Assembly: GCA_035063765.1 (NCBI GenBank)
Contig: JAPSFT010000005.1
Coordinates: 62,001-126,000, forward strand
Direction of reading: 5' to 3'
DNA: 64,000 bases
Source of the DNA: Deltaproteobacteria bacterium
GTDB taxonomy: Bacteria; Myxococcota_A; UBA9160; PR03
A program made the position numbers and the translations under genes. This document shows, piece by piece, positions 3,815 through 64,000 of the stretch. Below the pieces are notes generated by a model. That model searched no databases. It was not told the DNA's origin and saw only the letters and a list, made by a program, of their open reading frames with translations. Numbering within the stretch: the stretch's first letter is position 1; the number at the start of each line of letters is the position of its first letter.

Positions 3815-3924
3815 GCCAGATGCAAGGCGCGACGACGAGTCCCATCGAGAGAGGGCGAGGAGGAGCAACGCAGCAGATGGCCTGCCGCCGCAAGCGATGC
3901 GACCGAGCCGATGTCTTCACAGGC
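3770..3924. repeat. 155-bp imperfect palindrome fused to the 3' end of the metalloprotease gene
   Basis: The left end reads GCCTGTGAAG (3770-3779) and the right end its exact complement CTTCACAGGC (3915-3924). Inside, ATCGGC near both ends, AGGCCA near the quarter points and CCCATCGAGAGAGGG near the middle give two partly matching arms. It could be a bidirectional terminator between convergent genes, but its length and complexity look more like a REP/MITE-type mobile palindrome. The stop codon of the upstream gene (3812-3814) lies inside the left arm, so the element supplies that protein's last 14 residues. No second copy was seen in the window. Confidence 0.55.
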
Positions 3925-41862: not shown

Positions 41863-41938
41863 TGCGGCGCCAGGCGCGGGCACGCGGGGGCGCGGCTCGG
41901 GAGGCACGGGCGGCAAGGCCGGCGTCGCGCCCCGGCGC

Positions 41939-41944
41939 TAGCCT
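41939..41944 (+). promoter_or_regulatory. Candidate -10 (TAGCCT) of the acvB-mprF operon
   Basis: TAGCCT ends 11 bp before ATG 41956, which has no Shine-Dalgarno sequence. A very short leader is likely. Confidence 0.4.
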
Positions 41945-41955
41945 GCGCGGGCTCG

Positions 41956-46770: not shown

Positions 46771-49700
46771 ATGGTCGTCGTGGCAGATCGGACCCGGAAT
46801 ACACGCGGAGGGGTTGCGCCCTGGCGCCGCTGGCTCGTGCCCTGCGCGGTGCTCGTGGCGACGCTTGCGCTCGCCTGCCGGGAGCAGGGCCGCGTCCTCT
46901 TCCAGCAGGCGAGCGTAGACGTCGAGAGCTTCGAGCTGGTCTCGGAGCGGGTGATCGCTCCGACCGTCACCGAGTCCACCTACCGTGCAAGGTGTAGAGC
47001 CAGGGCGGGGTCCTACGACGACGCGATCGTCTTCGTGAGCACGGAGGCGCTCGGCGTGGAGCTCGTCGATGCGGTGGCGCGCTGTGGCCCGCTCGGCGCT
47101 GGAGACACGCGGGACAGCGTCGAGACGATCGTGCTGGAGCGCGATCCCACGCGGCCCTTCGATCCGAACGTGCTCGACTGGATCGCGGTCGCCTACGGCC
47201 CCCACACGCGTGTGGCCGCGGAGCCAGCGCCCGGGGGAGCGCAGCGGCTCCGCTACGAGGTCGAGGTCACCGACTCGACCGGCCAGCAGGACATCGCCGT
47301 GGGCGTCACGAGCGTGAGCCCGTCGATCACCGTCGTGGACGGGCTCGTCACGGCCTCCACGCAGCGTTCCTCCACCAGCGTGCGCAACACCGAGACCTTC
47401 GAGGTCCTCGTGGAAGCCGGCGCGTCCTTCGATCCCGCAGGCCTTGCATGGACGCTGTCGCGCGGCATGCGCAGCGCCTTCGCGCTCGGCGTGACGCGCA
47501 CCCTCGACGGTGCGGGCCAGCCCCTCGGCGCCGTGCAGATCGAGGAGGAGGGGCCCGCGGGGCCCGCGCTCGGGACGTCCGAGAGCGAGACGGGCCTTGC
47601 GACGCTCGCGCTCGCGGCGGGCACCTTCCACTGGAAGTTCTCGCACGACGGGCATCTGCCGGTCTGGCGCGAGGCCACGCTCGCGGCTGGCCAGGTGCTC
47701 TCCGTCCCGAGCCCGTGGCTGCCCGCGCGCAGCAGCGCGCCGCCGGCCGCGCTCAGCGTGCTGAACGGCGGAGAGGTCGCTGGTGACGGGGTGCTCGTAC
47801 GCTTCGCGCCGGGCGCCTTTGCGGCCCCGGCGACCGGCACGCTGACCCCCGTCGGTGGCCAGGCGCTCCCGGGGCTGCTGCCCGCCGGCTGGAGCCCGCT
47901 CGCGGCGTTCTGGCTCGAGCTCTCGGCCGAGCCGCAGGCGCCGGGACAGGCGGAGCTCGTGCTCGGCGAGCGGCTCGTACCGGGCGAACGCGCCTTCCTG
48001 GTGCGTTTCGACCCGCCGACGCGCCGCTGGATCGAGACCGGCTCGCCGGTCACGGCGAGCGACACGCTCGCGACGGTGGCGCTCGCGGCGCCGGGCGCCT
48101 ACGCGATCGTGGTGGCGGACGCCGGTCCGACGGCGCCGCCGATACCCGCCGCTGGTGCGGTGCTCGAGCCCACGGCGACGCCCTTCCCGCTGCCGGACGG
48201 TCTCACCGCGACGGGAACCGTGACGCCGCCCGTCGCGGCCGCGAGCGAGGAGCCCTCGCTCGTGACGGCCCGGAGCGAGGTCGTGGTGGCCCACACGGGC
48301 CCGCTCCCGAGCGGGCTCGTGCTGCGCGCCAGCGTGGACGAGCAGTACCTCCTCCGCGACGGCACGGCGCGCACCACCCCGAGCTACGAGACCTTCTTCG
48401 TCGCCTACCAGCGGCCGGGCGACGGGGATCCGCTGACCCTGCACGCGCGCTTCCCGCTGCGCCCGCAGCTCACCCTCGGCCCGGACGCGCTCGACGAGGC
48501 GCACGTCGCGCTCGAGGTCCTGCCGGTCACCGCCTTCCAGGGGGGCCTGTTCAGCCCGAGCGGTGGGCGGGTCTACGCGCCGGGCGTGCTGATCTCGGCC
48601 GGCAGCGACGCCGTCGATCGCGCGCGGGCCGTCGAGCTGCGCGCACTCGACCCCGCGCGCTTCGCCGGGGAGCTGCCGCCCGGCGCGGCGCTCGTCGCGT
48701 TCGAGCTCGGGATCGAGCTGCGCGACGGCGCGCGCGTGGAGGCCGCGTTCGACCAGCAGGCGCCGAACGCCCATTTCGTGCTGGCGCGCCTCGTGCAGTC
48801 CGGGGCGCGCTCGGGCCTCGAGCCCCGTGTCCGCTATGCGAGCGACGGGTTCGGCGTGCTGCGCAGCGTCGAGCCGGCCAGTGGCTCGAAGCTGCCAGGC
48901 ATCACCTCCGCGGGAACCTACGTGCTCGTGCGTGTCGACGGCCCCCGCGCGCTCGTCGAGGGCGTCGCGCGTGATACCCGGGGCCAGCCGGCCGAGGGGC
49001 TCGCCGTCACCGTCGCGGGTGAGCCGTGGCTGACCTTCTCCGGGGCCGGCGGCCGCTGGCAGCTCGTCGCGCCGGTGGGGCAGGCGGAGGTCACCGTCAC
49101 CGACCTGCGCAACGGCGACCGCGGCGCGCAGAGCGTGCTGCTCGCCGACGCCACGAGCGTGGGCAACGCCGATCTCGGTACCCAGCCTGCGGGGCCCCGC
49201 GTGGTGGAAACCGACCCCGCCGACGGCGCGACCGGCGTGCGCGCCTCGACGCCGATTCGCGTCGCCTTCAGCGAGCGCGTGGCGCCGCTCGCGCCTGGCG
49301 ACCTCGTGCTCACGGACGACGGCGGTAGCCCTGTTGCGGCTACGCTCTCGGTCAACCTCGCGCGCACCGAGGTCACGCTGCTGCCGGTCGATCCGCTCCC
49401 GGCGGGCGCGCAGTTCACGGTGACGCTCGCGGACACCATCGCCGATCCGGGCGGCCTTCCGCTCGAGGGTCCGCGCGTGTTCCAGTTCACGACGCGCCAA
49501 TCCGCCCCGCGCGGCGCCGGTGCACAGCTCGTCTCGTGGGAACCCGGCGCGCAGACCAGCGAGTGCAACGACGTGCCGGGCTTCGACCCGGCCGAGACCG
49601 ACATCTCGTGTGTGGTCGGCACCCAGGGCGCAGCGGATCCCGATGTCGCGGTGATCGTCGTGAACGACACCCAGGGCACCACTGCGACCGTGCGCTCGCA

Positions 49701-52700
49701 GCTCGACGGGAGCTTCGAGACCTTCATTGCCGCCGACGTCGATGACTTCCTCTCGGCGGCCTTCGTGAACGCCAACGGGACGCGCATCACGCTCCCGTTG
49801 TCGCGCCAGAACTTCGACGACGGCTCGGTCGCGCTGTTCCCGAGCGGCGGCATTCTCGAAGCCGAGAGCGACGGCGGCCCGGTGCAAGTGATCGTCGAGC
49901 CCGATGCGGTCCCGACCAAGACCAAGTTCAAGCTGGACGTCTCGGACAGCCTCGCGGTGATCCAGCAGCTGCTCGCCGAGGCGCCGCCCGAGAACGGCGC
50001 CACGCTTCTCGACGCCGCCCGCGTCGAGATCGACGGCGAGCTGCGCGAGGCAGCCGACATCGCCTTCCCGCTGGACCCCGCCGACCTCGCGCTGCCGCCG
50101 GGTGAGACGCCCGAAGAGCAGAGCTACGTGATCGCCGAGCCGATCGAGGTCGACGGTGTGACCGTGTACCGCGTCGTCGACGAGGCGCGCTTCGAGGACG
50201 GCCAGGTGCGCACGGCCTCGCCGCCCTTCGAGGGGCTGCTGCCCTCCAGCGGCCTGCTCGTCGCGATGATGTTCCCGCCGATCGCGACCGCGACCGTCAC
50301 CGTGAGCGGTCGCGTCGGCGCGGTGTCGGAGGCGCTCGGCCGGCCGCCGACGAGCGCGGAGATCCTCGGCGGCGCCGCAGGCCGGCTTCCGATCGCGCCC
50401 GTCGCGGGCGCGGTCGTGAGCGCAGTCCCGGCTGGATCGGAGCTAAGCGGAGACCGCTTGCGCCCGGGCGGCTTCGTCGCGCTCACCAACCGCGCGGGCT
50501 TCTACGCGATCAAGGTGGACGTTCAGGGCACGGCCGACGCGGTCGGCATGCGCGCCACGTCGCTGCGCTTCCCGGGACGCATCGCGCGCGGCTCGTTCCC
50601 GGTGTTCGAGGCGCAGAGCGTCGGCAACTTCGGCGTCGTCACGTCCGACTTCGCCTTCCTCCTGCCCGCCGGCTCGGAGGGCGGCGCCGACGGCTTCGCG
50701 CCGATCATCAATCCGCTCCCGCCGAGCTCTGTGCTGCCCGTCGGCCAGGACGTTTCGGTTCCCTTCGACCTGCGCGACGACCGCACCGCGCCGAGCATGG
50801 AGAGCGTCGTCTTCCGGCCCGAGCTCTCCGCATCGCTGGTTCCCGGCGAGCCGCTCGGGGCAGTGAGCGTCACCGAGGGCGCCACCACGCCGCTCAATGC
50901 GACGAGCGCCCGCACCGACGTGAACTTCCGCGTCGAGCGCGACGCGCTGGTCGCGGTCGAGGTACGGGCCAAGGACGCGGCCGGCAACGAGCGCACCGCG
51001 CTGCATCGCTTCCGCTTCGGCGCGCCGCCGCCGCCGCCGCCGCCGGGCGGGCTCCAGCCGAGCGATCCCGACGACGCGACACCACCCCGCGTATCGTCGA
51101 TTGTACCGACCGACGGAGCGATGGTCGCGGATCTCGAGGCGATCGTCGTGCGCTTCAGCGAGGCCGTCGCCGAGGACATCGAGACGAACGGCGCGGTGAC
51201 GATTCGTTCGTCGGCGCTCGGATCGATCGTCGCGGGCGTCGAGCTCTCGGCCGATCAGCTCACTGCGCGCATCGACCCGGGCGTGCTGGTCGCCGACGAC
51301 GAGTACACGGTGACGATCGGGACGGCGGTCCGGGATCTCGCCGGAAACCCGATGGCGAGCTCCACCACGGTGACCTTCCGCACGCCGCCGATCGCGGGCG
51401 GTCCGCTGCCGGACGTGGCGGTTCCCGTCGCGACGGTGATGCAGGGCAACGTCGCCTATACGCTCGACCGTGGCACGGGCCAGAACGACGAGGGCATCTG
51501 GATCCACGGCGTCGCGGACCCCGAGCAGCCCGTCGTGCTCGGCCGCTACCTCGGGCTGCCCGACTACCCGCGCGCGCTCGCGATCGTACCGAAGTGGTCG
51601 TACCAGCAGACGCTCACCGCGCCGGCCCGCGAGGACCGCACGCTGCTCGTCGCGGCCGGCGGCCTCGTGGGCGACGGCAACGCCGGCCAGTGGATCCACG
51701 TCGTCGACGTGACCGATCCGGCGAGTCCCGAGCGCGTGGCGAGCCTGCTGGCGATCCCGGACTTCTCCTCGGCGATCGTGCTGCTGCGCGCGAGCGCGCC
51801 GCGCCTGTTCACGCTCGTGAACACGGGCGAGGGCGGCGTGGTCCAGATCATCGACCTCCAGAGCTTCATCGTCGGCTGCAACATGAGCTCGCAGGAGTTC
51901 ACCGACAATCCGCCCCGCGCGGGCTCCGACGCCAACGGCGACGGCGACTTCGTGGATGGCGGTGACACGCTTCCCATTCCCGAACGGAGCTCGCTCTTCG
52001 GGCAGGAAGCCGCCATCGCGGCGCCCAACCGCCACGCCATCGGCGACTTCGACGTGGCGCTCGGCGGCAGCACGCTCGTGTCGGTGATGAACGCGTCCAC
52101 CGATGGCTTCGGCAGCAGCTTCCCGGCGCGCCTCCAGATCCACTTCGCCGACGGCCTCTTCGTCGGCGACGGCGGCAGCGCCGACGGCGCCGTCGAGTTC
52201 CCGACCGAGCCGCGTCCGTTCCGGGTGCGCATCGATCCCGACCTGCCCGTGCCCGACGGGAGCGGCGGCCTGCGCGTCGTTCGCGCCGCGCTCGTCGCGC
52301 GCGGCAAGCGGATCGAGGTCTGGGACATCACCGATCCGCTGGCGCCCGCGCGGATCGCCGACATCGGGTTCGGTCCGGCGCTCGGACCGGACGCGCGCAT
52401 CTTCGCGATCGAGCCCGCCGGTCCCGACCGGTGGGTCGTGGCGACCGACGAGAAGATCTTCTTCCTCGACCGCTCGCGCCTGACCGAGGCCGCTGCGAGC
52501 GCGGACGACGCGAGTCCCGCCGTCGAAGACGCGATCGATCTCGGCACTAGCGGGCGAAGCTTTGCGGTGTCAGGCAGCACGCTCGTCGCTCCCGGAGCGA
52601 AGCAGATCGTGCAGCTCGCGCCGCGGGTGTCGATCGTCCAGGTGCCGGGCAGCGCGGTGACGACGGCCGACGCGCTGCGCGCGCGGTCCGAGACCGCGAT

Positions 52701-55700
52701 CCGCGAGTTCCTCGGCGGGCGCGTCGAAGAGGCATTCCTGCTCCCGGCTCCGCTCGAGGCCACGGGCGGCTTCGCGGCGGCGCTCACCGACCCGCCCGTT
52801 CCCCGTTTGCATCACTACGCGCTGCTCGAAGGCTCGGGTGCCAGCGGCAGCGAGGTGAAGCTCGCGATCGAGTCGCTCGAGCGGGACGGCACGCTGCTGT
52901 CGGCGAAGGGCGAGAGCTTCGGCGCGATCTTCCTGTCCGACAACGCCGCCTCGATCCGGCTGGAGGCGCCGATTCATCCGGCCGTGACCTCGCTGCGCGC
53001 GAAGCGGCTCTCCGACGACCCGCTGAGCCCGCTCTACGACCTGTTCCTGAGCGATCCCTTCGTGATCGTCCGCGAGCCGCTGACGGCGGCGCAGCGCCAG
53101 AGCCTCGAGGGCGGGAGCCTTCCGCGCGCGGTGGTGCACGCCGGCGAGCAGATGCGCGTCAGCATCGACTTCAGCCCGAGCGTCGACGGCGTCGACGCGC
53201 TCGAGGGCAAGATCGAAAGCTCGTCCTACGAGCCCGGGCTGTCGCGCACCTACACATCCCTGTGCAGTGAGTACGTCGACTCGCCCAACCCGACCTTCGA
53301 GTCGGGCGCGCCGCGTCTCGCCGGCATGACGCTGCCGACCGGGGAGTACCGGCACGAGGCGACCGACCTCGCAGTGAAGGGGCGCTCGGCGGACCTCGTG
53401 ATGAGCCGCGTCTACGCGAGCCGCTCGGCGGCGGCCGGCGTGCTCGGGCCCGGCTTCGACTTCAATTGGAACGCGCGCATCTGCGAGCTACCGATCGGCG
53501 CGCTGCCTTCCGGATACCGGCTCCCGCTGACCTTCTACGGCGACGCCGGCTTCGACCGCATCGCGCAGCCCGGAGACGCCTTGCTCTCGGACGGCGCGGG
53601 CAACGTCCATCTCTATCGCCGCATCGACGAGGCGCACGGGAATCTGGCGAAGAAGCCGCTCTTCGAGACCGACCCGGCGATCGCGGCGTTCGGCTGGTCG
53701 TCGAAGATCGCCTCCTTCTACGAGTCGCCGCGCGACCGCTTCGACGCGCTCTACCGCATGAGCGATGGAAGCTTCGTGCACGTGGCGAGCAACGGCGCGC
53801 GCACCGTCTACGACGCCGACGGCCGCCTCACCGAAATCGTCCCCGCCTTCGTCGACAGCCGCATGCGTGTGTTCCGGCGCGCCGACGGCCGCCTCGACCG
53901 CGTGGAGGGCGATCGCGGCATCGCGCTCGAGTTCGGCTGGCGGCTGCCGACCACGAGCCCGAGCTTCGACACTACGATCGATCTCCCGTACTCGAGCGCC
54001 GCGGATCTCGGGCGGCTCGGCCGCGTGAAGGCCGGCGCGCGCAACGTCGAGTACCGCTACGACGACCACGGCCGCCTCGAGAGCGTCGTCCAGACCCACG
54101 GCCGGGACATGCGCTACGGCTGGAAGCCGGGCGATCCGCTGCGGCTCGCGAGCCACGGCCATGGCAGCGCGGGCGACGAGGAGCCGCGCGCCGCCATCAC
54201 GTACGACGGGGCGCTGGTCGACAAGGTCGACGTCCGCGGGACCGGGATCGACGTCGGCGGCGCGTATCTGACCGCCGAGGCGATGTTCGCGGCGAACGGC
54301 GGCACGGCCACCGCCGTGGTCGGCTCCGCGCCCGAACAGCAGTACGCCTTCGACCGCTTCGGCGGCGCGACGGACGTGGGCGGCGAGACCAGCACGGTCG
54401 ACGACGGCGGCCGCGTCAGGCAACTCGGCAGCGGTGGCGAGACGGTGACGCTCGAGTACGACGACGTTAACACCGCATGGCGCTTGCGCGGCAACCTGCT
54501 GCGCTCGACCGTCGGGAGCTTCGTGACCGAGCTGGTCTACGACGGCACGGCGTGGAATCGCCTCGTGCGGGTGACGACTCCCGAAGGGGTCACGACGACG
54601 TGGAGCTACGCGCCCGCGAGCATGCTCGACGTCACCGGCAGCAGCGGCCTGGAGATCGTCGCGACGACCGGGCCGGTCACGAACCGCTCGCACTTCAACC
54701 GCTGGGGTCAGTTCCAGGCGTCGAGCCTCGAGGAGAGCGGCGCCACGCCGCTGACGCGCGGCGTCCGGCTGGGCGGCTCCAACGATCTGCCCGAGACCGC
54801 GTCCTGGGGCGGCAGCTATCCGAGCGGAGCCGGCGGCCTCGTCGAGGTCAACATCGCCAGCGATTCCAACGGCGTGCCGTCGAGCTTCGACTCGGGCGGG
54901 AGGAATTTCGCGGTCCAGCGCGACGCGGACGGCGTGGCGACCGGCTTCGGCGACGCCGACCTCACGGTCAGCACGACCACGGACGACGGCCGGCCGGCCG
55001 GCATGACGGTGAGCACGGCGAGCGGAGCCGTCTCGCAGTCGCTCTCGTACGGGGCCGATCCCTTCGCCGTCGAGAGCATGCGGGACGAAGCGACGGGCCT
55101 CGCCGACGTGAGCACGAGCTTCGGCTACGACGGCTACGGCCGCGTGACTTCGCTTTCCTCGAACGGCGAGACGACGAGCTTCGGCTACACCGGCGCCGCG
55201 CTCACCAGCCGCAGCGGCCCCGGCATCGAGCAGTCGATCACGTTCCAGAACGGCGCTCCGACCGCGATCGAGGACCAGGGAATCGGAGCGGCGCTCGGCT
55301 ACGACGGCGAAGGGCGGCTCACTTCGCTCACCACCGATCTCGGGGCCTCGACCTTCCGTTACGGCAACGGCCGCCAGGTGGTCGGGAAGACCGTCACGGA
55401 CGCCAGCTTCGGAACGCTCGTCGACGAGACCTACGGCTACGACGCAGCCGGCCGACTCGAAAGCGTGACGGGCGCGCTCGCGCAGGCGTTCTCCTACTTC
55501 CCGGACGGAATGGTTCGGCGCGTCCAGGTGAATGGGCAGACCGTGAAGCAGCTGACCCGCGACGTCGCCGGCCGCGTGACGCGCATCGAGCTGCCGGCGC
55601 TCGGCATCACGACCGAGCGGACGGGCTTCGACGGCACGACGGGACGCACGCTCGGCGAGACGGTCACCTTCCCGAGCGGGCGCTCGCTCACGAAGACGTT

Positions 55701-58700
55701 CGACTACGCGAACGGCGCCCTGGCCTCGATCGCGCTGCCGAGCGGCGCGACGACGAGCTTCGGCCGCGACGACTTCGGCAACGGCACCGCGACCACGGAT
55801 CCGGACGGGGTCACGACGCGTGCCACCTACGCGGCCGACGGCAGCGTGCTGTCGGTCACCTTCGGCGACGGCACCGGCGCCGACTACCGCTACGACGGCA
55901 ATCGCCACCTCGTCGGGATCGGCGCGATGGACTTCACGCTCGACGCCGAGAAGCTGGTGTCGGTCGTCACTTGGCCCGACGGCACCGATACGAAGTTCCG
56001 GCGCACGCAGAACCCGCTGCTGGTGGACGAGATCGAGTACGGCGGCGCGACGCAGTTCCTGACGCGCGTCGCCGGCCAGACGCGCATCCTCGATGTGCCC
56101 AACACCGGCGACCGCATCGAGATGCAGCGCGACGCGCTCGGCGCCGTGCGCAAGGTGACGCGCGGGCAGCACGTGATCGACGTGGGCCTCGACGGCCGCG
56201 GCCGCGCCGTTTCGGAGTCCACGGCCCTCGGCACGTGGGCGGTCACGATCGACGATCTCGGCCGCACGGTCGACGAGGACTATCCATCGGGCCTCGCGCT
56301 CGACTACGCCGTCGACGGCTTCGGCCAGCCGACCCAGATCGGTGGCGTCGGGATCTCGTCGCTTGCGTTCGCTGCGCCGGGCGTCGTCGAGTCCCTCTCC
56401 TACGCCGGCGGCGTCACGTTCACGCGCACGCTCGACGCCGACCTCCGGACCACGACGATGCGCTGGGAGGCGAGCGGCGCTGCCGATCCGCCACCGGCGG
56501 CGGGCTTCGAGTACGAGCTCACGCAGGGCGGGCGCGTGCTCTCGGAGCACCGGCTGCACGACGGCCGCGTCGACGTCTACCGCCGCAACGCGCCGCCCGC
56601 CGGCATGCGCATCGTGGACTTCGAGCTCGGCGCCCTGTGCCGCGCGAGCTCCTGCGGCGACGCGACGCTCGACGCCGGCGAAGCCTGCGACGACGGCAAT
56701 CTCTTCGCCGGCGACGGCTGCCGCGCGGATTGCACCGCCGAGAGCTGCGGCGATGGCCGCCTCGACTTTGCCGAGCTGTGCGACGACGGCAACTCGCTCG
56801 GGGGCGACGGCTGCCGCGGCGACTGCACGGTCGAGCGCTGCGGCGACGGCGCGTTCGACGCCGGCGAAGCCTGCGACGACGGCAACGCGGGCGTCGGCGA
56901 CGGTTGCCGCGCCGATTGCACCGCCGAGAGCTGCGGCGACGGCGTGCTCGATCCGGTCGAGAGCTGCGACGACGGCAATGGGCTCGGCGGTGACGGCTGC
57001 GATGCGAGCTGCGGCGTGGAGATCTGCGGCAACGGGCGACTCGACACCGGCGAGGACTGCGACGACGCGAACGGCGCCTACGGCGACGGCTGCCGCCCGG
57101 ACTGTACGGCAGAGGCTTGCGGCGACGGGACGCTCGATCCCGGTGAGGGCTGCGACGACGGGAACCCGACTCCGGGCGACGGCTGCAGCCCGAGCTGTAT
57201 CTCGGACCTGTGCGGCAACGCCGCGACCGATCCCGGCGAGAGCTGCGACGACGGCAACAGCAGCGGCGGCGACGGCTGCGACCGGCGTTGCCAGGTCGAG
57301 GCCTGCGGCAACGGCTTCCTCGACACGGGCGAGGATTGCGACGACGGCAACGTCGTGAACGGCGACGGTTGCCGCAGCGACTGCAGCGTCGAGCGCTGCG
57401 GCGACCTCGTGGTGGATGCCGGCGAGTCCTGCGACGACGGCAACCCGGCCGGCGGCGACGGCTGCCGCGCGGACTGCACGGTCGAGCGCTGCGGCGACGG
57501 GCTCCTCGACGCGGGCGAGTCCTGCGACGACGGCAACGCGGCGGACGGCGACGGCTGCCGCGCCGACTGCAGCGTCGAGCGCTGCGGCGACGCCATCCCA
57601 GACGCCGGCGAAGACTGCGACGACGGCAATCTCACGACCGGCGACGGCTGCCGCGCCGACTGCAGCGCCGAGACGTGCGGCGACGGCGCCCTCGACTCGA
57701 ACGAGGTCTGCGACGACGGCAACACGAGCGGCGGCGACGCCTGCCTGCCGAACTGCACCGAGGCCGCTTGCACGAACGCCCAGCAAACCGCGCAGGCGCC
57801 AGCGGTCACGCTCGCGGGCTTCGACTTCGATGCCGAGAGCGAGCTGCTCTCGCCGCAATCGAGCAGCGGCGCCCCTGACAGCCGTGCGGTGTTCGCGGAC
57901 ATGACCGTGGTGGCGGGCCGCCTCCAGCAGGCGAGCGGCGTCACGGTGCTCTACGACGACGGCGGCTCGGTCTCGCAGGCACCGCTCTGGGTGCACCTGC
58001 CCGGCGATCCGACGCTCACGCAGGTGACCGCGAGCTTCGAGCACGACGGCTTCGGGATGCTGCGGCGGGTCACGCGCACTGACGGCTGCGAAGTGTCGTA
58101 CGTCCGCGACGGCATGGGCCGCATCGTCGAGCGGCGTGCGGCGGGACCCGCCGATCGATGCCGCGCCGGACGCCAGCACTTCGCTTGGAAGGACGGGCGC
58201 CTCATCGAGGAGTACGAGGAGGTCGGGCCGCCGCTGAGCCCTACGCGCGAGCTCACGCGGCGCTTCGTGTGGGTCGGCAGCCAGCTCGTGCTGGCGCAGG
58301 CCGCGGCGGCGCCCGGCGATCCGCTCGAGGACTTCATTCCGCTCGCCGGCATCAACGGCAGCGTGGGCGGCTACCTGGGTCGCGACGGCGCGCTGCTCGA
58401 GTCGATCAGCTACGGCCCGTACGGAACGCCGCGCGTGCAGCGCGTGGTGGACGGCACCCTGCTGCGCGGCGAGTCCGAGCGCTCCGCGATCGCGCACCGC
58501 TTGCTCTTCCACGCCGCGTTCTTCGACGAAGCGACCGGCCTCTACCAGATGGGCGAGCGCACGCTGCACCCGCAGCTCGGCCGCTTCCTCGAGCGCGACG
58601 CCGCGCTCTATCGCGACAGCCGCGCCCTGCTCACGGCGATGAACGGCGATCCGGTCGGCAATGTCGACCGCAAGGGCAGCCGGGTCGAGTCGGTCGTCAC

Positions 58701-59820
58701 GCAGGCGCAGCAATACGGCGAGATGGTGGAGTGGAGGACGGCGAAAGAGGCCGGCAAGGGGATGGTCGAAGGCTGGCAGGAGCTGCGCGAGGGGCTCGGT
58801 GAGCGCGACGACGACTGGACCAACCCGATCGGCCTCGGCAAGACGTCGCTGGAGTTCGTCGGGAAAGGGCTGGCGCTGGCCGGATCGTTCGGAAGCGAGC
58901 AGGAGCGCAAGCAGTTCCAGGCGGAGTGGATCGACAAGACCGAGGGCCTCTCGAAGAGCGTCGAGGCGATCCACAGCGTCTTCGAGGTCGAGCACGAAGC
59001 GGGGACCTTGAAGAAGCTGCTCGCGGCACAGGAGCTGGCGTCGCAGGTCGGCGTGGTGAAGTGGACGGTCGCGAAGGACGGTCTCACCGCCTTCACGGAG
59101 AGCGACGCCGGAAGCAGGCGGTCCCGGGCCGTCGGGACATCCATCGACCCGCCTGCAAAGGCGATCGAGTTCGCGTGCGACGCCGACACGCCGGACTCGC
59201 AGCGCGTGAAGCTCACCGACGCCCGGCTCGCGGCCGCCGAGGCGGTGCTCGAGCTCGCGAAATGGGCCGCCGCGGACGCGATGGAGGCCGACAAGGACGC
59301 CCCCGACATCGACATCGATCAGATGGACAAGAGCGCGATGGCGATGAACGTCGATGGCCTGTTCGGGGTGAGCGAAGCGCTGATCACCGCCGCCAAGGCG
59401 GTGCACGAGGCGCAGCAGGTCAAGGCGCTCTCCGAGGCGGGCAAGATCGCCTTCTCGGCGGGAGAGTTCGGATCGCTCTCGAGCCGCGTCTTCCCGGGCT
59501 CGGCCGCCCTCGCGCTCACCTTCGACGCGTCGTTCAAGGGGATGCAGGCCGTGCTGCTGCTCGTCTACGACGAGCGCCAGGGCAACGAGTACCGCCGCGC
59601 GCGGCGCCAGTTCTCCGAGGACGGCGTGATGACCGTCGGCAGCGGTCTCCTCTCCGCCGCGCACGACCTGACGGGCGTGCAGCTCCTGCAGGACGCGGCG
59701 TGGGCGATCCAGCGCTTCCATGACTACGACCCGGCCGGCGGCCCCGGTCCGTTCGCCGGACGCGTGCGCCAGGACCAGCAGCGCATGTACCTGCTCGAGC
59801 GGGGGCTGGATGCGAACTAG
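46771..59820 (+). CDS. Giant RHS/YD-repeat surface protein interrupted by twelve DUF4215 Cys-rich repeats
   Basis: The protein has 4,349 residues. After an export signal ending in LALAC (imperfect lipobox) come beta-rich regions; SbsA-type Ig-like domains at about 811-910 and 1439-1540 (TDPADGATGV, VPTDGAMVADLEAI); and a propeller-like stretch to about 1950. At about 2200, RSADLVMSRVYASRS resembles the DUF6531-type entry to RHS proteins. YD repeats (YDDHGRLESV and many relatives) fill 2344-3290. Twelve exact-length 31-residue DUF4215 repeats occupy 3295-3666. More YD repeats follow, then the RHS core with FDEATGLYQMGERTLHPQLGRFLERD near 3925, and a 400-residue C-terminal region of unknown fold, where RHS toxins usually sit. 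It overlaps the next gene by 11 bp. Confidence 0.92.
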   Translation: MVVVADRTRNTRGGVAPWRRWLVPCAVLVATLALACREQGRVLFQQASVDVESFELVSERVIAPTVTESTYRARCRARAGSYDDAIVFVSTEALGVELVDAVARCGPLGAGDTRDSVETIVLERDPTRPFDPNVLDWIAVAYGPHTRVAAEPAPGGAQRLRYEVEVTDSTGQQDIAVGVTSVSPSITVVDGLVTASTQRSSTSVRNTETFEVLVEAGASFDPAGLAWTLSRGMRSAFALGVTRTLDGAGQPLGAVQIEEEGPAGPALGTSESETGLATLALAAGTFHWKFSHDGHLPVWREATLAAGQVLSVPSPWLPARSSAPPAALSVLNGGEVAGDGVLVRFAPGAFAAPATGTLTPVGGQALPGLLPAGWSPLAAFWLELSAEPQAPGQAELVLGERLVPGERAFLVRFDPPTRRWIETGSPVTASDTLATVALAAPGAYAIVVADAGPTAPPIPAAGAVLEPTATPFPLPDGLTATGTVTPPVAAASEEPSLVTARSEVVVAHTGPLPSGLVLRASVDEQYLLRDGTARTTPSYETFFVAYQRPGDGDPLTLHARFPLRPQLTLGPDALDEAHVALEVLPVTAFQGGLFSPSGGRVYAPGVLISAGSDAVDRARAVELRALDPARFAGELPPGAALVAFELGIELRDGARVEAAFDQQAPNAHFVLARLVQSGARSGLEPRVRYASDGFGVLRSVEPASGSKLPGITSAGTYVLVRVDGPRALVEGVARDTRGQPAEGLAVTVAGEPWLTFSGAGGRWQLVAPVGQAEVTVTDLRNGDRGAQSVLLADATSVGNADLGTQPAGPRVVETDPADGATGVRASTPIRVAFSERVAPLAPGDLVLTDDGGSPVAATLSVNLARTEVTLLPVDPLPAGAQFTVTLADTIADPGGLPLEGPRVFQFTTRQSAPRGAGAQLVSWEPGAQTSECNDVPGFDPAETDISCVVGTQGAADPDVAVIVVNDTQGTTATVRSQLDGSFETFIAADVDDFLSAAFVNANGTRITLPLSRQNFDDGSVALFPSGGILEAESDGGPVQVIVEPDAVPTKTKFKLDVSDSLAVIQQLLAEAPPENGATLLDAARVEIDGELREAADIAFPLDPADLALPPGETPEEQSYVIAEPIEVDGVTVYRVVDEARFEDGQVRTASPPFEGLLPSSGLLVAMMFPPIATATVTVSGRVGAVSEALGRPPTSAEILGGAAGRLPIAPVAGAVVSAVPAGSELSGDRLRPGGFVALTNRAGFYAIKVDVQGTADAVGMRATSLRFPGRIARGSFPVFEAQSVGNFGVVTSDFAFLLPAGSEGGADGFAPIINPLPPSSVLPVGQDVSVPFDLRDDRTAPSMESVVFRPELSASLVPGEPLGAVSVTEGATTPLNATSARTDVNFRVERDALVAVEVRAKDAAGNERTALHRFRFGAPPPPPPPGGLQPSDPDDATPPRVSSIVPTDGAMVADLEAIVVRFSEAVAEDIETNGAVTIRSSALGSIVAGVELSADQLTARIDPGVLVADDEYTVTIGTAVRDLAGNPMASSTTVTFRTPPIAGGPLPDVAVPVATVMQGNVAYTLDRGTGQNDEGIWIHGVADPEQPVVLGRYLGLPDYPRALAIVPKWSYQQTLTAPAREDRTLLVAAGGLVGDGNAGQWIHVVDVTDPASPERVASLLAIPDFSSAIVLLRASAPRLFTLVNTGEGGVVQIIDLQSFIVGCNMSSQEFTDNPPRAGSDANGDGDFVDGGDTLPIPERSSLFGQEAAIAAPNRHAIGDFDVALGGSTLVSVMNASTDGFGSSFPARLQIHFADGLFVGDGGSADGAVEFPTEPRPFRVRIDPDLPVPDGSGGLRVVRAALVARGKRIEVWDITDPLAPARIADIGFGPALGPDARIFAIEPAGPDRWVVATDEKIFFLDRSRLTEAAASADDASPAVEDAIDLGTSGRSFAVSGSTLVAPGAKQIVQLAPRVSIVQVPGSAVTTADALRARSETAIREFLGGRVEEAFLLPAPLEATGGFAAALTDPPVPRLHHYALLEGSGASGSEVKLAIESLERDGTLLSAKGESFGAIFLSDNAASIRLEAPIHPAVTSLRAKRLSDDPLSPLYDLFLSDPFVIVREPLTAAQRQSLEGGSLPRAVVHAGEQMRVSIDFSPSVDGVDALEGKIESSSYEPGLSRTYTSLCSEYVDSPNPTFESGAPRLAGMTLPTGEYRHEATDLAVKGRSADLVMSRVYASRSAAAGVLGPGFDFNWNARICELPIGALPSGYRLPLTFYGDAGFDRIAQPGDALLSDGAGNVHLYRRIDEAHGNLAKKPLFETDPAIAAFGWSSKIASFYESPRDRFDALYRMSDGSFVHVASNGARTVYDADGRLTEIVPAFVDSRMRVFRRADGRLDRVEGDRGIALEFGWRLPTTSPSFDTTIDLPYSSAADLGRLGRVKAGARNVEYRYDDHGRLESVVQTHGRDMRYGWKPGDPLRLASHGHGSAGDEEPRAAITYDGALVDKVDVRGTGIDVGGAYLTAEAMFAANGGTATAVVGSAPEQQYAFDRFGGATDVGGETSTVDDGGRVRQLGSGGETVTLEYDDVNTAWRLRGNLLRSTVGSFVTELVYDGTAWNRLVRVTTPEGVTTTWSYAPASMLDVTGSSGLEIVATTGPVTNRSHFNRWGQFQASSLEESGATPLTRGVRLGGSNDLPETASWGGSYPSGAGGLVEVNIASDSNGVPSSFDSGGRNFAVQRDADGVATGFGDADLTVSTTTDDGRPAGMTVSTASGAVSQSLSYGADPFAVESMRDEATGLADVSTSFGYDGYGRVTSLSSNGETTSFGYTGAALTSRSGPGIEQSITFQNGAPTAIEDQGIGAALGYDGEGRLTSLTTDLGASTFRYGNGRQVVGKTVTDASFGTLVDETYGYDAAGRLESVTGALAQAFSYFPDGMVRRVQVNGQTVKQLTRDVAGRVTRIELPALGITTERTGFDGTTGRTLGETVTFPSGRSLTKTFDYANGALASIALPSGATTSFGRDDFGNGTATTDPDGVTTRATYAADGSVLSVTFGDGTGADYRYDGNRHLVGIGAMDFTLDAEKLVSVVTWPDGTDTKFRRTQNPLLVDEIEYGGATQFLTRVAGQTRILDVPNTGDRIEMQRDALGAVRKVTRGQHVIDVGLDGRGRAVSESTALGTWAVTIDDLGRTVDEDYPSGLALDYAVDGFGQPTQIGGVGISSLAFAAPGVVESLSYAGGVTFTRTLDADLRTTTMRWEASGAADPPPAAGFEYELTQGGRVLSEHRLHDGRVDVYRRNAPPAGMRIVDFELGALCRASSCGDATLDAGEACDDGNLFAGDGCRADCTAESCGDGRLDFAELCDDGNSLGGDGCRGDCTVERCGDGAFDAGEACDDGNAGVGDGCRADCTAESCGDGVLDPVESCDDGNGLGGDGCDASCGVEICGNGRLDTGEDCDDANGAYGDGCRPDCTAEACGDGTLDPGEGCDDGNPTPGDGCSPSCISDLCGNAATDPGESCDDGNSSGGDGCDRRCQVEACGNGFLDTGEDCDDGNVVNGDGCRSDCSVERCGDLVVDAGESCDDGNPAGGDGCRADCTVERCGDGLLDAGESCDDGNAADGDGCRADCSVERCGDAIPDAGEDCDDGNLTTGDGCRADCSAETCGDGALDSNEVCDDGNTSGGDACLPNCTEAACTNAQQTAQAPAVTLAGFDFDAESELLSPQSSSGAPDSRAVFADMTVVAGRLQQASGVTVLYDDGGSVSQAPLWVHLPGDPTLTQVTASFEHDGFGMLRRVTRTDGCEVSYVRDGMGRIVERRAAGPADRCRAGRQHFAWKDGRLIEEYEEVGPPLSPTRELTRRFVWVGSQLVLAQAAAAPGDPLEDFIPLAGINGSVGGYLGRDGALLESISYGPYGTPRVQRVVDGTLLRGESERSAIAHRLLFHAAFFDEATGLYQMGERTLHPQLGRFLERDAALYRDSRALLTAMNGDPVGNVDRKGSRVESVVTQAQQYGEMVEWRTAKEAGKGMVEGWQELREGLGERDDDWTNPIGLGKTSLEFVGKGLALAGSFGSEQERKQFQAEWIDKTEGLSKSVEAIHSVFEVEHEAGTLKKLLAAQELASQVGVVKWTVAKDGLTAFTESDAGSRRSRAVGTSIDPPAKAIEFACDADTPDSQRVKLTDARLAAAEAVLELAKWAAADAMEADKDAPDIDIDQMDKSAMAMNVDGLFGVSEALITAAKAVHEAQQVKALSEAGKIAFSAGEFGSLSSRVFPGSAALALTFDASFKGMQAVLLLVYDERQGNEYRRARRQFSEDGVMTVGSGLLSAAHDLTGVQLLQDAAWAIQRFHDYDPAGGPGPFAGRVRQDQQRMYLLERGLDAN
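56653..57768 (+). repeat. Twelve tandem 93-bp DUF4215 (Myxococcus-type Cys-rich) repeats
   Basis: Each unit encodes 31 residues of the form CGDG-x-D-AGE-x-CDDGN-x(4)-DGC-x-x-x-C with four cysteines at positions 1, 12, 23 and 27. Exactly 12 units fit with no indel, then the pattern stops at CTNAQQ. The conserved DDGN...GDGC core resembles a calcium-binding loop. Forty-eight cysteines imply disulphides outside the cytoplasm. The array sits between YD-repeat blocks of the RHS gene. Confidence 0.93.
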
Positions 59821-62800
59821 GCGCGTCGCTGCTGCGCTCGCGCTCGCCGCCGCGCTCGCCGGTGCGGCGTCCGCCGCGCGCGCCACCGACGTGCTCACGA
59901 CGCTCGACTACCGCGTCGTCGGCGTCGCGCTGCGGCCGGTGCGCACGAGCCTCGCGATCCCGAAGAACGTGCCGGGGGCGGTCACCATCGAGCTGATCGC
60001 GGGCAGCGAGGGCAACACCGTGGAGGAGCTCGCGCGCGGCGCGGTCGTCGAAGCGACCCTGCGCGGCCCCTCCTTCGCCGCGCGCCGCGTGGTCGGGCTC
60101 CCGAACGGCGACCTCGTGCTCCCGCCGCTGCCGCTGGTCGGCGACTACTCGCTCGACGACATCCGGCTCGTCGACGTCGCCACCGGCGCGACCCGGCTCG
60201 ACGCGAGTCCGCGCTCGCTGCCGGTCACCGTCTTCGACGAGGTGCTCGTCTCGCGCGTCACCTCGCGTCCGCTGACCCTCGACGAGATCGAGGCCCGAGG
60301 CATCACGATCGACGAGTCGAGCTTCCGCGTGCTCGAGTTCGAGGTGGGCTTCGTGCTCGACGGCCAGACGGTGCCGGTCAGGTTCCCGGTCGTCGCGCCG
60401 CGCTTCGACGGCAAGGTCGAGCTGATCCCGAAGGCGGAGCTCGAGGCGCTCCTCACCGAGGCCCAGGCCGCGAACGCCGAGCTGGCGCTGGGGGCCGAGC
60501 TGCCCCCCGAGCTGGAGGCCGCCGGCCTCGACATCGACGTCCAGGGCGTGAACTTCCAGTTCGTCGAGCCGGCCGAGGACGACGACCTCGCGCTGGCGGT
60601 GCCGCCGATCCCGGGCCTCGTCGTGGTGCCCGGCCGGATCGGCCTCCTGAACCAGTTCTTCAGCGTGATGCTCTTCACCGAGAACGCGGCGCCGAACGGG
60701 TCCGGGCTCTCGGTGCGCGACCTCGCCGCGACGATGACGCTGCCCGCCGGGCCCGACCAGATCGCCGGCACCCACGCGGCGCCGGGCGACGACCCGCTGC
60801 GCTTCGCGCGCGTCGGCCCCGACGCGGTGATCGAGCCGACGCAGCCCGTCGTCGGCCCCGGCGCGGACGGCCAGCTCGGCAGCGCGGACGACCGCACGCG
60901 GCTCGCCCCCGGCGATACCGGCCAGGCCGAGTTCCTGGTGGAGGGCCTGCGCGAAGGCCTCCACGTGATGGACCTCGTGATCGACGGCACGCTCGACGGG
61001 CTCGGCCGGACGAGCCGCCGCATCCGCGGCTTTGCGTCGGGCTCGGTGCTGGTGCGCAATCCCAGGTTCTCGCTCGCCTTCACCCACCCGCGCACGATCC
61101 GCAGCGGCGAACCCTACACCGCAGCGGTGACGGTGCTCAACACGAGCCCGACGCCCGCCAACCTGGTCTCGGTGACGCTGCCCGCGGCGAGCCTCTCCGG
61201 CGCCGTCTTCGAGCCGGGCACGCCCGAGGTCGCCGAGCTCGGGACGATCCTGCCGGGCGAGACCGCGACCGCCGAGTTCCGCCTGCGCGCGCAGCGCACC
61301 GGCGCCATCACCTTCTCGCAGCTCACCAGCGACTCGGACCTCGTCGGGCGTTTCCGCCTGCGCATGGGCGTCGACGAGCGCGGCGTCGCGCTCTCGCCCG
61401 ACGCGATCGGCTACCCGGACTTCGCCGAGGACGTGCGCGCGCTCTCGCCGGCGCTCTTCCAGGCCTTCGAGCGCTACCTCGGCCAGGCGCTCTCGGTCGC
61501 GACGGCGGCGCAGCTCCCGCCGGGTGTCGAGCCGGTGTCGCGCGGCGCGCTCGAGTCGCGCGTGCTCGCGATCGCGGAGGCGGGCCAGCGGCTGCGCTAC
61601 GGAGACACCGCGCCCCGCGTGCTCGCGGACCTGCTGCTCGACTTCCAGGGCGCGCGCCGCCCCCACGCGGGCCTCGACCAGATCTGGCGCGAGACCGGCG
61701 CCGGTCGCGAGCTGCGCGAGGCGCTGCTCGCCGCGCTCGCCGCCGAGGCCGCCGAGCCCGGCGCGGTGGCGCTGCTCGCGGCGCGTGCGGCGGACCTCGC
61801 CGGCCGCGGCGAGCCCTGGCTCGTGGCGGCGGTGGACGCGGAGGCCTGGTCGCCTGCCTTCGAGCTGGCGGGCGCGCTTGCGGAGCTCGGCGAGAGCGAG
61901 ATCGGGAACGCGGCGGGATTCTCGGGTTCCCCGTCGGCCGCGGTCGACGGACACTGGATCGCGTCCCGGCCGATCGCCGGGATGCTGCGCCTCGTCGCCG
62001 GCGCGGACGCGCCGGCCGCGGAGCTGGCACTCCTCGACCTCGCCGGCGACGGAACGGGCACGCTCTGGCGCTGGCCGCTGCCGGCGCTGCCGCGCGGCGC
62101 CTGCCTGCGCGCCGCCCTCGGTGGTGCCACGGCGCCCCCGCTCGCGGTGGACGAGACCTGCGACGGGTCGAGCGAGGCCGTGCTCGCGCCGGCGAGCGAG
62201 CCGGTCGTCGAGCCGGCGCCCGCCGTGCTCGCCGCCGTGCAGGACGAGCAGGTGCTCGCGGGTCGGCCGTCCAAGCCGTGCCCGCGCCCCGACATCCGCA
62301 ACTACGGGACCGTGGTCGGCGTGCTCTTCTCGAAGCCGATGACGCAGGCGAGCGTGGACGTGCCCGGCGCCTACCGCTTCGAGGACGGCAACGGCGCCGA
62401 GTCGGTGCAGATCCAGCCGGGCGGCCGCGTGGCGTTGCTGAACCTCGGGCAGCCGGTCGGCACGCTCGTCGCGCGCACGCTTTCGGTGGCCCCCGAGGTG
62501 ACCGATCCACGCGGCAACCCGCTCACCGTGGGGTCGGTGCCGCTCCAGGCGACGGCTGCGATCGGCGTCTCGATCGCCGGGCGCGTGATCCGCGCGAGCG
62601 GCGAGCCCGCCGCCGGCGTGCCGGTGACGCTCACCATCTACGACGAGGTCATGGGCTTCGCATGCGAGCCCGCCACCGCGCGGCCCGCGCAGGCGCGCAG
62701 CGACGCCGAAGGGCGCTTCCACTTCGACTACGTGCCGGCGGGCATCCCCTACTCGGTGTCGGCTACCGACACGAGCGGTCTCTCGAGCGAGGCCGAGGCG

Positions 62801-64000
62801 CTGATCCTCGCCGCGAGCAGCGACGCGCAGCTCGACCGCGCGCGGCTGCTCGAGCTCGCGAGCGGCTCGGCGGCCGGTACGCTCCTCGAGCAGTTCGCGG
62901 CCGGCGCGCTGCCGCAGGCGATCGCGGCGGCCGAGGGGCTCGACCGCGCGCTCCTGCGCGACCACGTTGCCGAGGAATCGGCGCGCGTCGGCGGCGAGGT
63001 ACCGGTGGCACTGCGCTTCCGCGGCCGCGGCACCGTCCTGGGCACGGTCTTCGAGCCGGACGGGGTCACGCCGTCGCCGGGCGCGGCCGTGAACCTCTTC
63101 CCCGACCCCGACTCGCGTGAGCTCGGGCGGGGCGTGTTCTCGGACGCCTCGGGCCGCTTCGCCTTCTTCGGCGTGCCGCTCGGCGCGTTCTCGATCGATG
63201 CCGCGAGCCCGAGCGGGCGCGGGCGCACCGTCTCCGGCGTCCTGCTCGCACCCGGCGAGGGGAAGGACGTGCCGGTCGTGCTGGCTTCCGCGGTGGTGCC
63301 GCGCGGCGCGATCGAGGGCCGCGTGCTCGAGCCGGACGGCAGCGGGCACGGCGGCGCGCGCCTCTTCGTCGGGCGCTACGACGAGGTGACGGGCGAGTTC
63401 ACGCCCGTCGTGTCGGTCGCGACGGCCGACCCGCAGGGCTTCTACCGCGCCGAGAACGTCCCGGTCGGCACCTGGGTGGTGCTCGCCGTCTCCTTCGACG
63501 GCCGCCGCCGCGGTGAGCGCGCGAACGTCGGCGCGACCGCGGCCAGTGCCAGCATCGCCAACGTGATGCTGCAGGGCCGCACGACCGTGCGCGGGCGCGT
63601 CGAGTTCGCAAACGGCGCGCCCGGCGCCTTCGCGCTGGTCGCCGGCGGCGAGGCGCTGGTGCGCGCCGACGCCGACGGCCACTTCGTCGCGACCGGTGTG
63701 CCGACCGGCCGGCGCTCGATCGAGGCGGCGGTCGAGGCGGACCCCGCGCGCGGCATCGACTTCACGCGCATCGGCCGCGCGAGCCTCGACGTGATCGCGG
63801 GCCTCGAGAACTTCGTCGTGGTCCGCCTGACGCCGGCGGGCCGGATCCTCGGCGTCGTGCGCGACGCCGCCGGCAACCCGGTGCCGGACGTCGACGTCTC
63901 GATCCCGCAGGAGGGCGGCTTCCTCTGGGTCCACGCGAACGCGCAGGGCCAGTTCGAGTTCCCGAACCTGGCGCTCGACGACTACACCGTGAGCGCGCCC
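59810..64000 (+). CDS. Giant secreted protein with Ig-like and carboxypeptidase-regulatory-like domains (3' end outside window)
   Basis: An open frame starts at ATG 59810, inside the last codons of the RHS gene, and continues for all 1,397 codons to the window end. The first 25 residues form a Sec signal peptide (LALAAALAGAASA). About residues 420-520 look like a conserved-repeat/DUF11-like adhesion domain (TVLNTSPTPANLVSVTLP). An SbsA-type Ig-like domain follows at about 820-910 (VGVLFSKPMTQASVD). From about 920, at least five carboxypeptidase-regulatory-like beta domains occur (GRVIRASGEPAAGVPVTL; SDASGRFAFFGVPLG; GRVLEPDGSG; ADADGHFVATGVPTG; GVVRDAAGNPVPDVDV). It is operonic with the RHS gene and is probably its surface partner. 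Confidence 0.88.
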   Translation, partial: MRTRRVAAALALAAALAGAASAARATDVLTTLDYRVVGVALRPVRTSLAIPKNVPGAVTIELIAGSEGNTVEELARGAVVEATLRGPSFAARRVVGLPNGDLVLPPLPLVGDYSLDDIRLVDVATGATRLDASPRSLPVTVFDEVLVSRVTSRPLTLDEIEARGITIDESSFRVLEFEVGFVLDGQTVPVRFPVVAPRFDGKVELIPKAELEALLTEAQAANAELALGAELPPELEAAGLDIDVQGVNFQFVEPAEDDDLALAVPPIPGLVVVPGRIGLLNQFFSVMLFTENAAPNGSGLSVRDLAATMTLPAGPDQIAGTHAAPGDDPLRFARVGPDAVIEPTQPVVGPGADGQLGSADDRTRLAPGDTGQAEFLVEGLREGLHVMDLVIDGTLDGLGRTSRRIRGFASGSVLVRNPRFSLAFTHPRTIRSGEPYTAAVTVLNTSPTPANLVSVTLPAASLSGAVFEPGTPEVAELGTILPGETATAEFRLRAQRTGAITFSQLTSDSDLVGRFRLRMGVDERGVALSPDAIGYPDFAEDVRALSPALFQAFERYLGQALSVATAAQLPPGVEPVSRGALESRVLAIAEAGQRLRYGDTAPRVLADLLLDFQGARRPHAGLDQIWRETGAGRELREALLAALAAEAAEPGAVALLAARAADLAGRGEPWLVAAVDAEAWSPAFELAGALAELGESEIGNAAGFSGSPSAAVDGHWIASRPIAGMLRLVAGADAPAAELALLDLAGDGTGTLWRWPLPALPRGACLRAALGGATAPPLAVDETCDGSSEAVLAPASEPVVEPAPAVLAAVQDEQVLAGRPSKPCPRPDIRNYGTVVGVLFSKPMTQASVDVPGAYRFEDGNGAESVQIQPGGRVALLNLGQPVGTLVARTLSVAPEVTDPRGNPLTVGSVPLQATAAIGVSIAGRVIRASGEPAAGVPVTLTIYDEVMGFACEPATARPAQARSDAEGRFHFDYVPAGIPYSVSATDTSGLSSEAEALILAASSDAQLDRARLLELASGSAAGTLLEQFAAGALPQAIAAAEGLDRALLRDHVAEESARVGGEVPVALRFRGRGTVLGTVFEPDGVTPSPGAAVNLFPDPDSRELGRGVFSDASGRFAFFGVPLGAFSIDAASPSGRGRTVSGVLLAPGEGKDVPVVLASAVVPRGAIEGRVLEPDGSGHGGARLFVGRYDEVTGEFTPVVSVATADPQGFYRAENVPVGTWVVLAVSFDGRRRGERANVGATAASASIANVMLQGRTTVRGRVEFANGAPGAFALVAGGEALVRADADGHFVATGVPTGRRSIEAAVEADPARGIDFTRIGRASLDVIAGLENFVVVRLTPAGRILGVVRDAAGNPVPDVDVSIPQEGGFLWVHANAQGQFEFPNLALDDYTVSAP

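What the first reader, a model, noticed from the sequence alone, without database searches (positions are those of the whole stretch)
46771..59820. RHS shell protein with a 12-unit DUF4215 array spliced between YD repeats
The YD-repeat region is split by 372 residues of exact-length Cys-rich DUF4215 repeats, after which YD repeats resume and the RHS core motif follows. An RHS shell is usually a continuous YD-repeat cocoon, so a large disulphide-rich, possibly calcium-binding array would have to loop out of the wall or form a surface spike. DUF4215 is typical of myxobacterial surface proteins, so this looks like a lineage-specific surface RHS rather than a type VI-delivered one. The repeats and motifs are seen directly; the structure is inferred.
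Basis: partly seen in the sequence, partly recalled or inferred. Interest (0 to 1): 0.72.

Follow-up and report, generated by a model that had tools for sequence, protein, structure and literature searches.

The report
Giant RHS lipoprotein with inserted cysteine-repeat array
An uncultured bacterium makes a giant, probably surface-anchored, hollow-shell (RHS) protein into whose wall a chain of twelve cysteine-rich beads has been inserted at a single loop; close relatives have the same protein without the beads, so this is a real but lineage-limited decoration of a known kind of protein.

Summary
ORF 46771-59820 (+, 4349 aa) carries 12 DUF4215/TIGR02232 repeats, each exactly 31 aa (residues 3295-3666), between YD-repeat wall segments, followed by the RHS core. 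Two relatives (same family; same order) encode the same protein in the same operon without the array. Aligning the flanks separately places the array at one point, an existing loop between shell strands (WIN 3288 = G002 3356 = G019 3401) that AlphaFold2 leaves disordered in G002. Both relatives instead carry an extra ~100-130-residue segment (read as Ig-like) inside the RHS core, so the shell tolerates loop insertions. No other of 83 RHS ORFs examined has DUF4215; several giant RHS proteins of the phylum carry MopE or other Cys-rich arrays, but N-terminal to the shell. All three orthologues have a lipobox. No T6SS sheath gene (VipA) was found. C-termini are unrelated; the next gene encodes a large exported Ig/TSP3 protein conserved at 59-80%, not a matched immunity protein. 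Best reading: an outer-membrane RHS lipoprotein of polymorphic-toxin layout whose wall was decorated with an outward disulphide/acidic array acting as stalk or adhesin. Precedents: SGS1, bacterial teneurin-like proteins, embedded lectins. New variant of a known kind; array function untested.

The parts
46771..59820 (+). Giant RHS lipoprotein, 4349 aa
   Evidence: Open frame; Pfam/NCBIfam hits
46771..46878 (+). Export signal with lipobox LALA-C36 (residues 1-36)
   Evidence: Sequence read directly; orthologues G002 (..GLLAAC) and G019 (..AFASAC) have lipoboxes at the same place
46882..50220 (+). Conserved N-terminal platform, residues ~38-1150 (includes Big_5/CopC-like and CarboxypepD_reg-like domains)
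   Evidence: 62% identical to G002 and 42% to G019; Pfam
51073..51384 (+). Big_5 Ig-like domain, residues 1435-1538
   Evidence: Pfam PF13205
53338..56634 (+). RHS/YD shell wall before the array (residues 2190-3288, starts with DUF6531)
   Evidence: PF20148, PF05593; colinear alignment to G002/G019
56638..56640 (+). Extra Cys3290 just before the array
   Evidence: Sequence
56653..57768 (+). 12 x 31-aa DUF4215/TIGR02232 array, residues 3295-3666, 48 Cys
   Evidence: TIGR02232 E 3.6e-83, 12 stretches; unit table; TRF period 93
57769..57771 (+). Extra Cys3667 just after the array
   Evidence: Sequence
57955..58458 (+). Wall after the array (residues ~3729-3896)
   Evidence: Aligned separately to G002 3438-3594 (z 10) and G019 3486-3659 (z 19)
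58468..58677 (+). RHS core domain (residues 3900-3969); Asp pair D3943/D3966 kept at the canonical positions, cleavage motif DPxG[WLF] degenerate (DRKGS)
   Evidence: TIGR03696 34.5 bits; positions; motif from PMC8765631
58699..59817 (+). C-terminal domain, residues 3977-4349, no known family
   Evidence: No significant hit in Pfam, PDB sequences or 379 genomes of the phylum
59810..64000 (+). Overlapping downstream gene (3797 aa, continues past the window to about window coordinate 71203): signal peptide, CarboxypepD_reg x12, Big_5 x4, TSP3
   Evidence: ATG at 59810 overlaps the RHS stop codon; conserved next to the RHS gene in G002 and G019

Best explanation
This is an exported outer-membrane RHS lipoprotein with polymorphic-toxin layout: lipobox, conserved N-terminal Ig-like platform, YD shell, RHS core, swappable C-terminal domain. 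In this lineage a pre-existing array of DUF4215 repeats was inserted into one loop between shell strands near the last part of the wall. The wall continues on both sides, so the array most likely loops out as a compact, disulphide-stabilised, acidic chain that serves as a stalk or adhesive/ion-binding surface on the outside of the shell, probably working with the large Ig/TSP3 protein encoded by the overlapping downstream gene. Shown: the array, the site, its absence in orthologues, the lipobox, the operon. Inferred: that the shell closes, that the array points outward, its adhesive role, and that the C-terminal domain is a cargo.
For: Array and flanks in one frame. Orthologues without the array in G002 and G019, colinear over nearly the whole protein. 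Site mapped by aligning the flanks separately. In the G002 shell model the site is a disordered loop (model 757-784) between strands 749-756 and 785-789, and that model matches solved RHS, bacterial TLP, teneurin and Tc shells (E down to 2e-37). The window model's YD parts also match RHS shells. The shell tolerates loops: both orthologues carry an extra segment between the YGPYG-like and LLFHG-like parts of the core that the window lacks. Surface: lipobox in all three; no VipA in the genome. Cargo: three unrelated C-termini; G002's resembles the TreX toxin domain (8s2m, E 3.8e-7), G019's weakly the papain-fold toxin family (E 0.0012, below cut-off). Precedents: SGS1 (PMC9935623), bacterial teneurin-like proteins predicted to be SPII lipoproteins in Myxococcota (PMC13018210), Cys-rich repeats proposed as a rigid stalk in TraA (PMC3325183).
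Against: One genome only for the array. AlphaFold2 of the window stretch is poor (mean pLDDT 51) and neither model fixes inside versus outside; the G002 model has pTM 0.32. No solved structure resembles the array by sequence. No immunity gene follows the toxin end in any of the three operons. The window shell is more degenerate than the orthologues' (core 34.5 versus 65-67 bits).
Confidence: 0.6

Rival explanations
1. The protein has lost encapsulation/toxin delivery and now works only as a giant surface adhesin, in the manner of animal teneurins; the array is one more adhesive module in a shell under relaxed constraint.
For: The window wall is more diverged (23-36% to orthologues from residue 1201 on, versus 24-47% between the orthologues over the same stretch); core score barely over cut-off (34.5 versus 65-67 bits); cleavage motif DPxG[WLF] reads DRKGS; C-terminal domain orphan; no immunity gene.
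Against: The aspartate pair (D3943, D3966, 23 apart; 22 in RhsA and 24 in BiTLP) is kept; orthologues in the same operon have toxin-like ends.
Confidence: 0.22
2. The insertion is a passive recombination event at a tolerant loop, without its own function.
For: Window units are as similar to those of another DUF4215 protein of the same genome (0.61) as to each other (0.61), fitting import of an existing array; only one genome has it.
Against: 372 residues with all 48 Cys in phase and the frame intact, although units have diverged to 61% identity, suggest maintained folding.
Confidence: 0.1
3. The array lies inside the shell or acts as a gate/plug.
For: Inside versus outside is not resolved by the models.
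Against: 372 disulphide-rich residues would compete with the 373-residue C-terminal domain for the cavity; inserted domains in SGS1 are all on the outside (PMC9935623).
Confidence: 0.05
4. Assembly artefact joining an array to an RHS gene.
For: The genome is a 57-contig draft and the array is repetitive.
Against: Units are only ~71% identical in DNA, the contig is 295 kb, and both flanks and the downstream gene match the same orthologous operon colinearly.
Confidence: 0.03

Closest known systems
Bacterial teneurin-like proteins (TLPs), PMC13018210
   Same: Lipoprotein/SPII prediction in Myxococcota, variable N-terminal adhesion domains, YD shell, variable C-terminal domain; solved TLP 9ifo matches the G002 model (E 2e-33)
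   Different: No teneurin-named Pfam family appeared in the scans of the window protein; no small immunity gene directly downstream; array lies within the wall rather than N-terminal
Mosquito SGS1 (8fjp), PMC9935623
   Same: YD shell with domains inserted into the repeat sequence and displayed outside
   Different: Eukaryotic; inserted domains are Ig-like, propeller and wedge, not a Cys-rich tandem array
RHS polymorphic toxins with lectin domains embedded among the repeats, PMC3482391
   Same: Extra adhesive domain inside the RHS repeat region; swappable C-termini
   Different: Inserted domain is a DUF4215 array; no immunity gene seen
TraA of Myxococcus xanthus, PMC3325183
   Same: Myxobacterial surface protein with Cys-rich tandem repeats proposed as a rigid stalk
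   Different: Different repeat model (TIGR04201), PA14 head, no RHS
T6SS Rhs effectors (RhsA, PMC8765631)
   Same: Shell fold and RHS core
   Different: Those have PAAR/plug and T6SS delivery; here lipobox and no VipA

Membership tests
RHS/YD-repeat shell proteins | YD repeats plus RHS-associated core above curated cut-off | tested here: met
   TIGR03696 34.5 bits (cut-off 32.5); PF05593 52.1 bits (cut-off 22)
RHS/YD-repeat shell proteins | Closed beta-cocoon fold | tested here: inconclusive
   Models match RHS shells by Foldseek but with low pTM (0.32-0.33) and low TM-scores
DUF4215 / myxo_disulf_rpt | Repeats above the curated cut-off | tested here: met
   TIGR02232 273 bits, 12 stretches
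Polymorphic toxin | Conserved delivery part with unrelated C-termini | tested here: met
   Three orthologues, unrelated C-termini
Polymorphic toxin | Immunity gene next to the toxin end | tested here: not met
   The next gene overlaps or abuts the RHS stop in all three operons and is a large conserved Ig-type protein
Polymorphic toxin | C-terminal domain is toxic | not testable with these tools
   No homologue of the window C-terminus found
RHS aspartyl autoprotease | Catalytic Asp pair and DPxG[WLF] site | tested here: inconclusive
   D3943 and D3966 present, site reads DRKGS
T6SS Rhs effector | PAAR domain / T6SS in genome | tested here: not met
   No PAAR family in the Pfam scan; no VipA
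Bacterial teneurin-like protein | FN-plug, NHL and YD-shell teneurin profiles | tested here: inconclusive
   No teneurin-named family among the Pfam hits (E<=0.01 whole protein; E<=10 for residues 1501-3985), but no known TLP was run as a positive control and the authors' own profiles were not available
Outer-membrane lipoprotein | Lipobox at the N-terminus | tested here: met
   LALA-C36; orthologues likewise, by inspection only; no signal-peptide predictor was on hand

The most novel reading that the evidence does not exclude
A bacterial RHS shell on its way from toxin carrier to surface adhesin, a counterpart to the origin of teneurins: release chemistry decaying while a Cys-rich array is built into the wall itself, within an operon whose first protein carries interchangeable payloads (RHS shell in three genomes; a subtilase domain in G040) beside a conserved exported partner.
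Probability: 0.18. Interest if true: 0.75.

Novelty: new variant of a known kind. Interest (0 to 1): 0.45.

Why it matters
It shows that an RHS shell wall can take a 372-residue disulphide-rich tandem array at one loop, with array-free orthologues as natural controls, which makes 'where can a YD shell be decorated' a testable question and marks an insertion site. It also points to a little-known two-gene operon of giant exported proteins in which the RHS shell is one of several payloads.

Tried and rejected
Global MAFFT alignment of the three RHS regions with the array left in: misplaced the array, so the flanks were aligned separately; the flanks were not joined. Genome-contig scan with the post-array part: one irrelevant planctomycete hit. 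Literature search for DUF4215, alone or with RHS: no paper in the library. Other N-terminal homologues (G039, G040, G296, G012) have no detectable RHS part in the sequence held. Cross-listing RHS-core and TIGR02232 hits over 80 genomes of the order: no second protein with both, but the DUF4215 list was truncated, so 83 other RHS ORFs were fetched and scanned directly. L079's Cys-rich stretches lie before its YD shell. Exact 31-aa unit length as a special feature: rejected.

Full report
What is there. The + strand ORF 46771-59820 encodes 4349 aa. Its N-terminus has a lipobox (LALA-C36). It carries Big_5 domains, weak CarboxypepD_reg and CopC matches, DUF6531 and RHS repeats, a 12-unit DUF4215/TIGR02232 array and an RHS core. 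The array is 12 units of exactly 31 aa, residues 3295-3666, with 48 Cys, bracketed by two further cysteines (3290, 3667); acidic residues make up 25% and basic 4% of it; only 12 cysteines lie elsewhere in the protein. TIGR02232 scores E 3.6e-83, far beyond chance.

Relatives. The genome is a 4.4-Mb draft and the window lies in a 295-kb contig. Among 98 relatives, searching with the pre-array shell gave two long orthologues: G002 (same family, 4101 aa) and G019 (same order, 4183 aa). An N-terminal query over 379 genomes of the phylum added only proteins that share part of the platform. The two orthologues have no DUF4215. Flanks aligned separately give WIN 3288 = G002 3356 = G019 3401 before the array, and WIN 3729/3732 = G002 3438 / G019 3486 after it. 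The post-array match is strong (z 10 and 19); the pre-array piece alone is weak (z 3.0 and 5.8) but ends a long colinear alignment. So about 440 window residues stand where the orthologues have about 81-84.

Structure. AlphaFold2 of the G002 shell (8 sequences, mean pLDDT 65.5, pTM 0.32) shows strands on both sides of the site and a low-confidence loop between them; Foldseek finds RhsA, Tse5, RhsP, bacterial TLP, teneurins and Tc shells. The window stretch is poorly modelled (pLDDT 51) though its YD parts match RHS shells. Neither model decides inside or outside. No PDB chain matches the array by sequence.

Is the combination recurrent? Over 80 genomes of the order no second protein with both domains was listed (the latter list was truncated). 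Large RHS ORFs fetched from the order and phylum were scanned directly: 85 ORFs with a core hit, two of them pieces of the window protein, leaving 83 others without DUF4215. Several giants of the phylum (L080, L082, L083, L084, L091, L093) carry MopE motifs (Pfam shown for L080 and L082; motif scan for the rest) before the shell, and L079 carries other Cys-rich repeats before it. Cys-rich arrays beside RHS shells thus recur, but the in-wall position is seen only here. Not all RHS ORFs listed were fetched.

Surface and cargo. No VipA was found in the genome. The next gene starts at 59810, overlapping the end of the RHS gene, and encodes 3797 aa with CarboxypepD_reg, Big_5 and TSP3. It is 80% identical in the part available from G002 and 59% in G019 and follows the RHS gene in both. 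In G040 a homologue of it follows a 4344-aa protein that shares the N-terminal platform but carries a subtilase domain and no RHS hit. The three C-termini are unrelated: G002 resembles TreX (8s2m, E 3.8e-7), G019 weakly resembles Gln_amidase, the window's has no match. No immunity gene fits between the two genes in any of the three.

Origin of the array. Window units are as close to those of the 536-aa DUF4215 protein on contig C3 (0.61) as to each other (0.61), so this is not a recent in-place amplification; import of an existing array is plausible. Runs of 31-aa spacing also occur in G002.

Mechanism. Shown: array, site, orthologues without it, lipobox, operon. Inferred: the wall closes around the insertion and the array projects outward as stalk or adhesive/ion-binding module. 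SGS1 (PMC9935623), bacterial TLPs (PMC13018210), embedded lectins (PMC3482391) and TraA's proposed stalk (PMC3325183) make this plausible. The window's wall and core are the most degenerate of the three (34.5 versus 65-67 bits) and its cleavage motif reads DRKGS while the Asp pair is kept, so loss of toxin release is the main rival.

Limits. Taxonomy was not established; 'Myxococcota' is an inference from gene content. The lipobox was read by eye. Whether Pfam's teneurin families, if present in the copy used, would recognise a bacterial TLP was not controlled, so TLP membership is left open.

Noticed in passing
L017 2841-4100 (G002) and L016 16222-17526 (G019): Both orthologues carry an extra ~100-130-residue segment (read as Ig-like from its SEPILPP / GTVLRV pattern) between the YGPYG-like and LLFHG-like parts of the RHS core; the window protein and other RHS proteins (L093, L091, L050) lack it.
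   Followed up: partly
L031 3060-16094 and G040:C183:40201-41778: The same N-terminal platform and downstream partner occur around a subtilase-containing protein instead of an RHS shell: a possible payload-swapping operon.
   Followed up: partly
L080, L082, L083, L084, L091, L093: Giant RHS proteins of other families in the phylum carry MopE metal-binding-type Cys-rich motifs N-terminal to the shell.
   Followed up: partly
G000:C12:40976-41188 (L134) and about 30 other genomes of the order: An RHS-core ORF of ~1200-1300 aa, usually one per genome, recurs across the order; three fetched examples are 33-38% identical over their length.
   Followed up: partly
G010 (many contigs): One genome of the order has 31 RHS-core matches, many in ORFs of 300-500 aa.
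   Followed up: no
window 40528-43278: MgtE-type transporter (CBS, MgtE_N) followed by a VirJ-family protein upstream of the RHS operon.
   Followed up: no
L019 4517-6127 (-): 536-aa protein of the same genome with 7 DUF4215 units and a following domain not identified here; its units are as close to the window's as the window's are to each other.
   Followed up: partly
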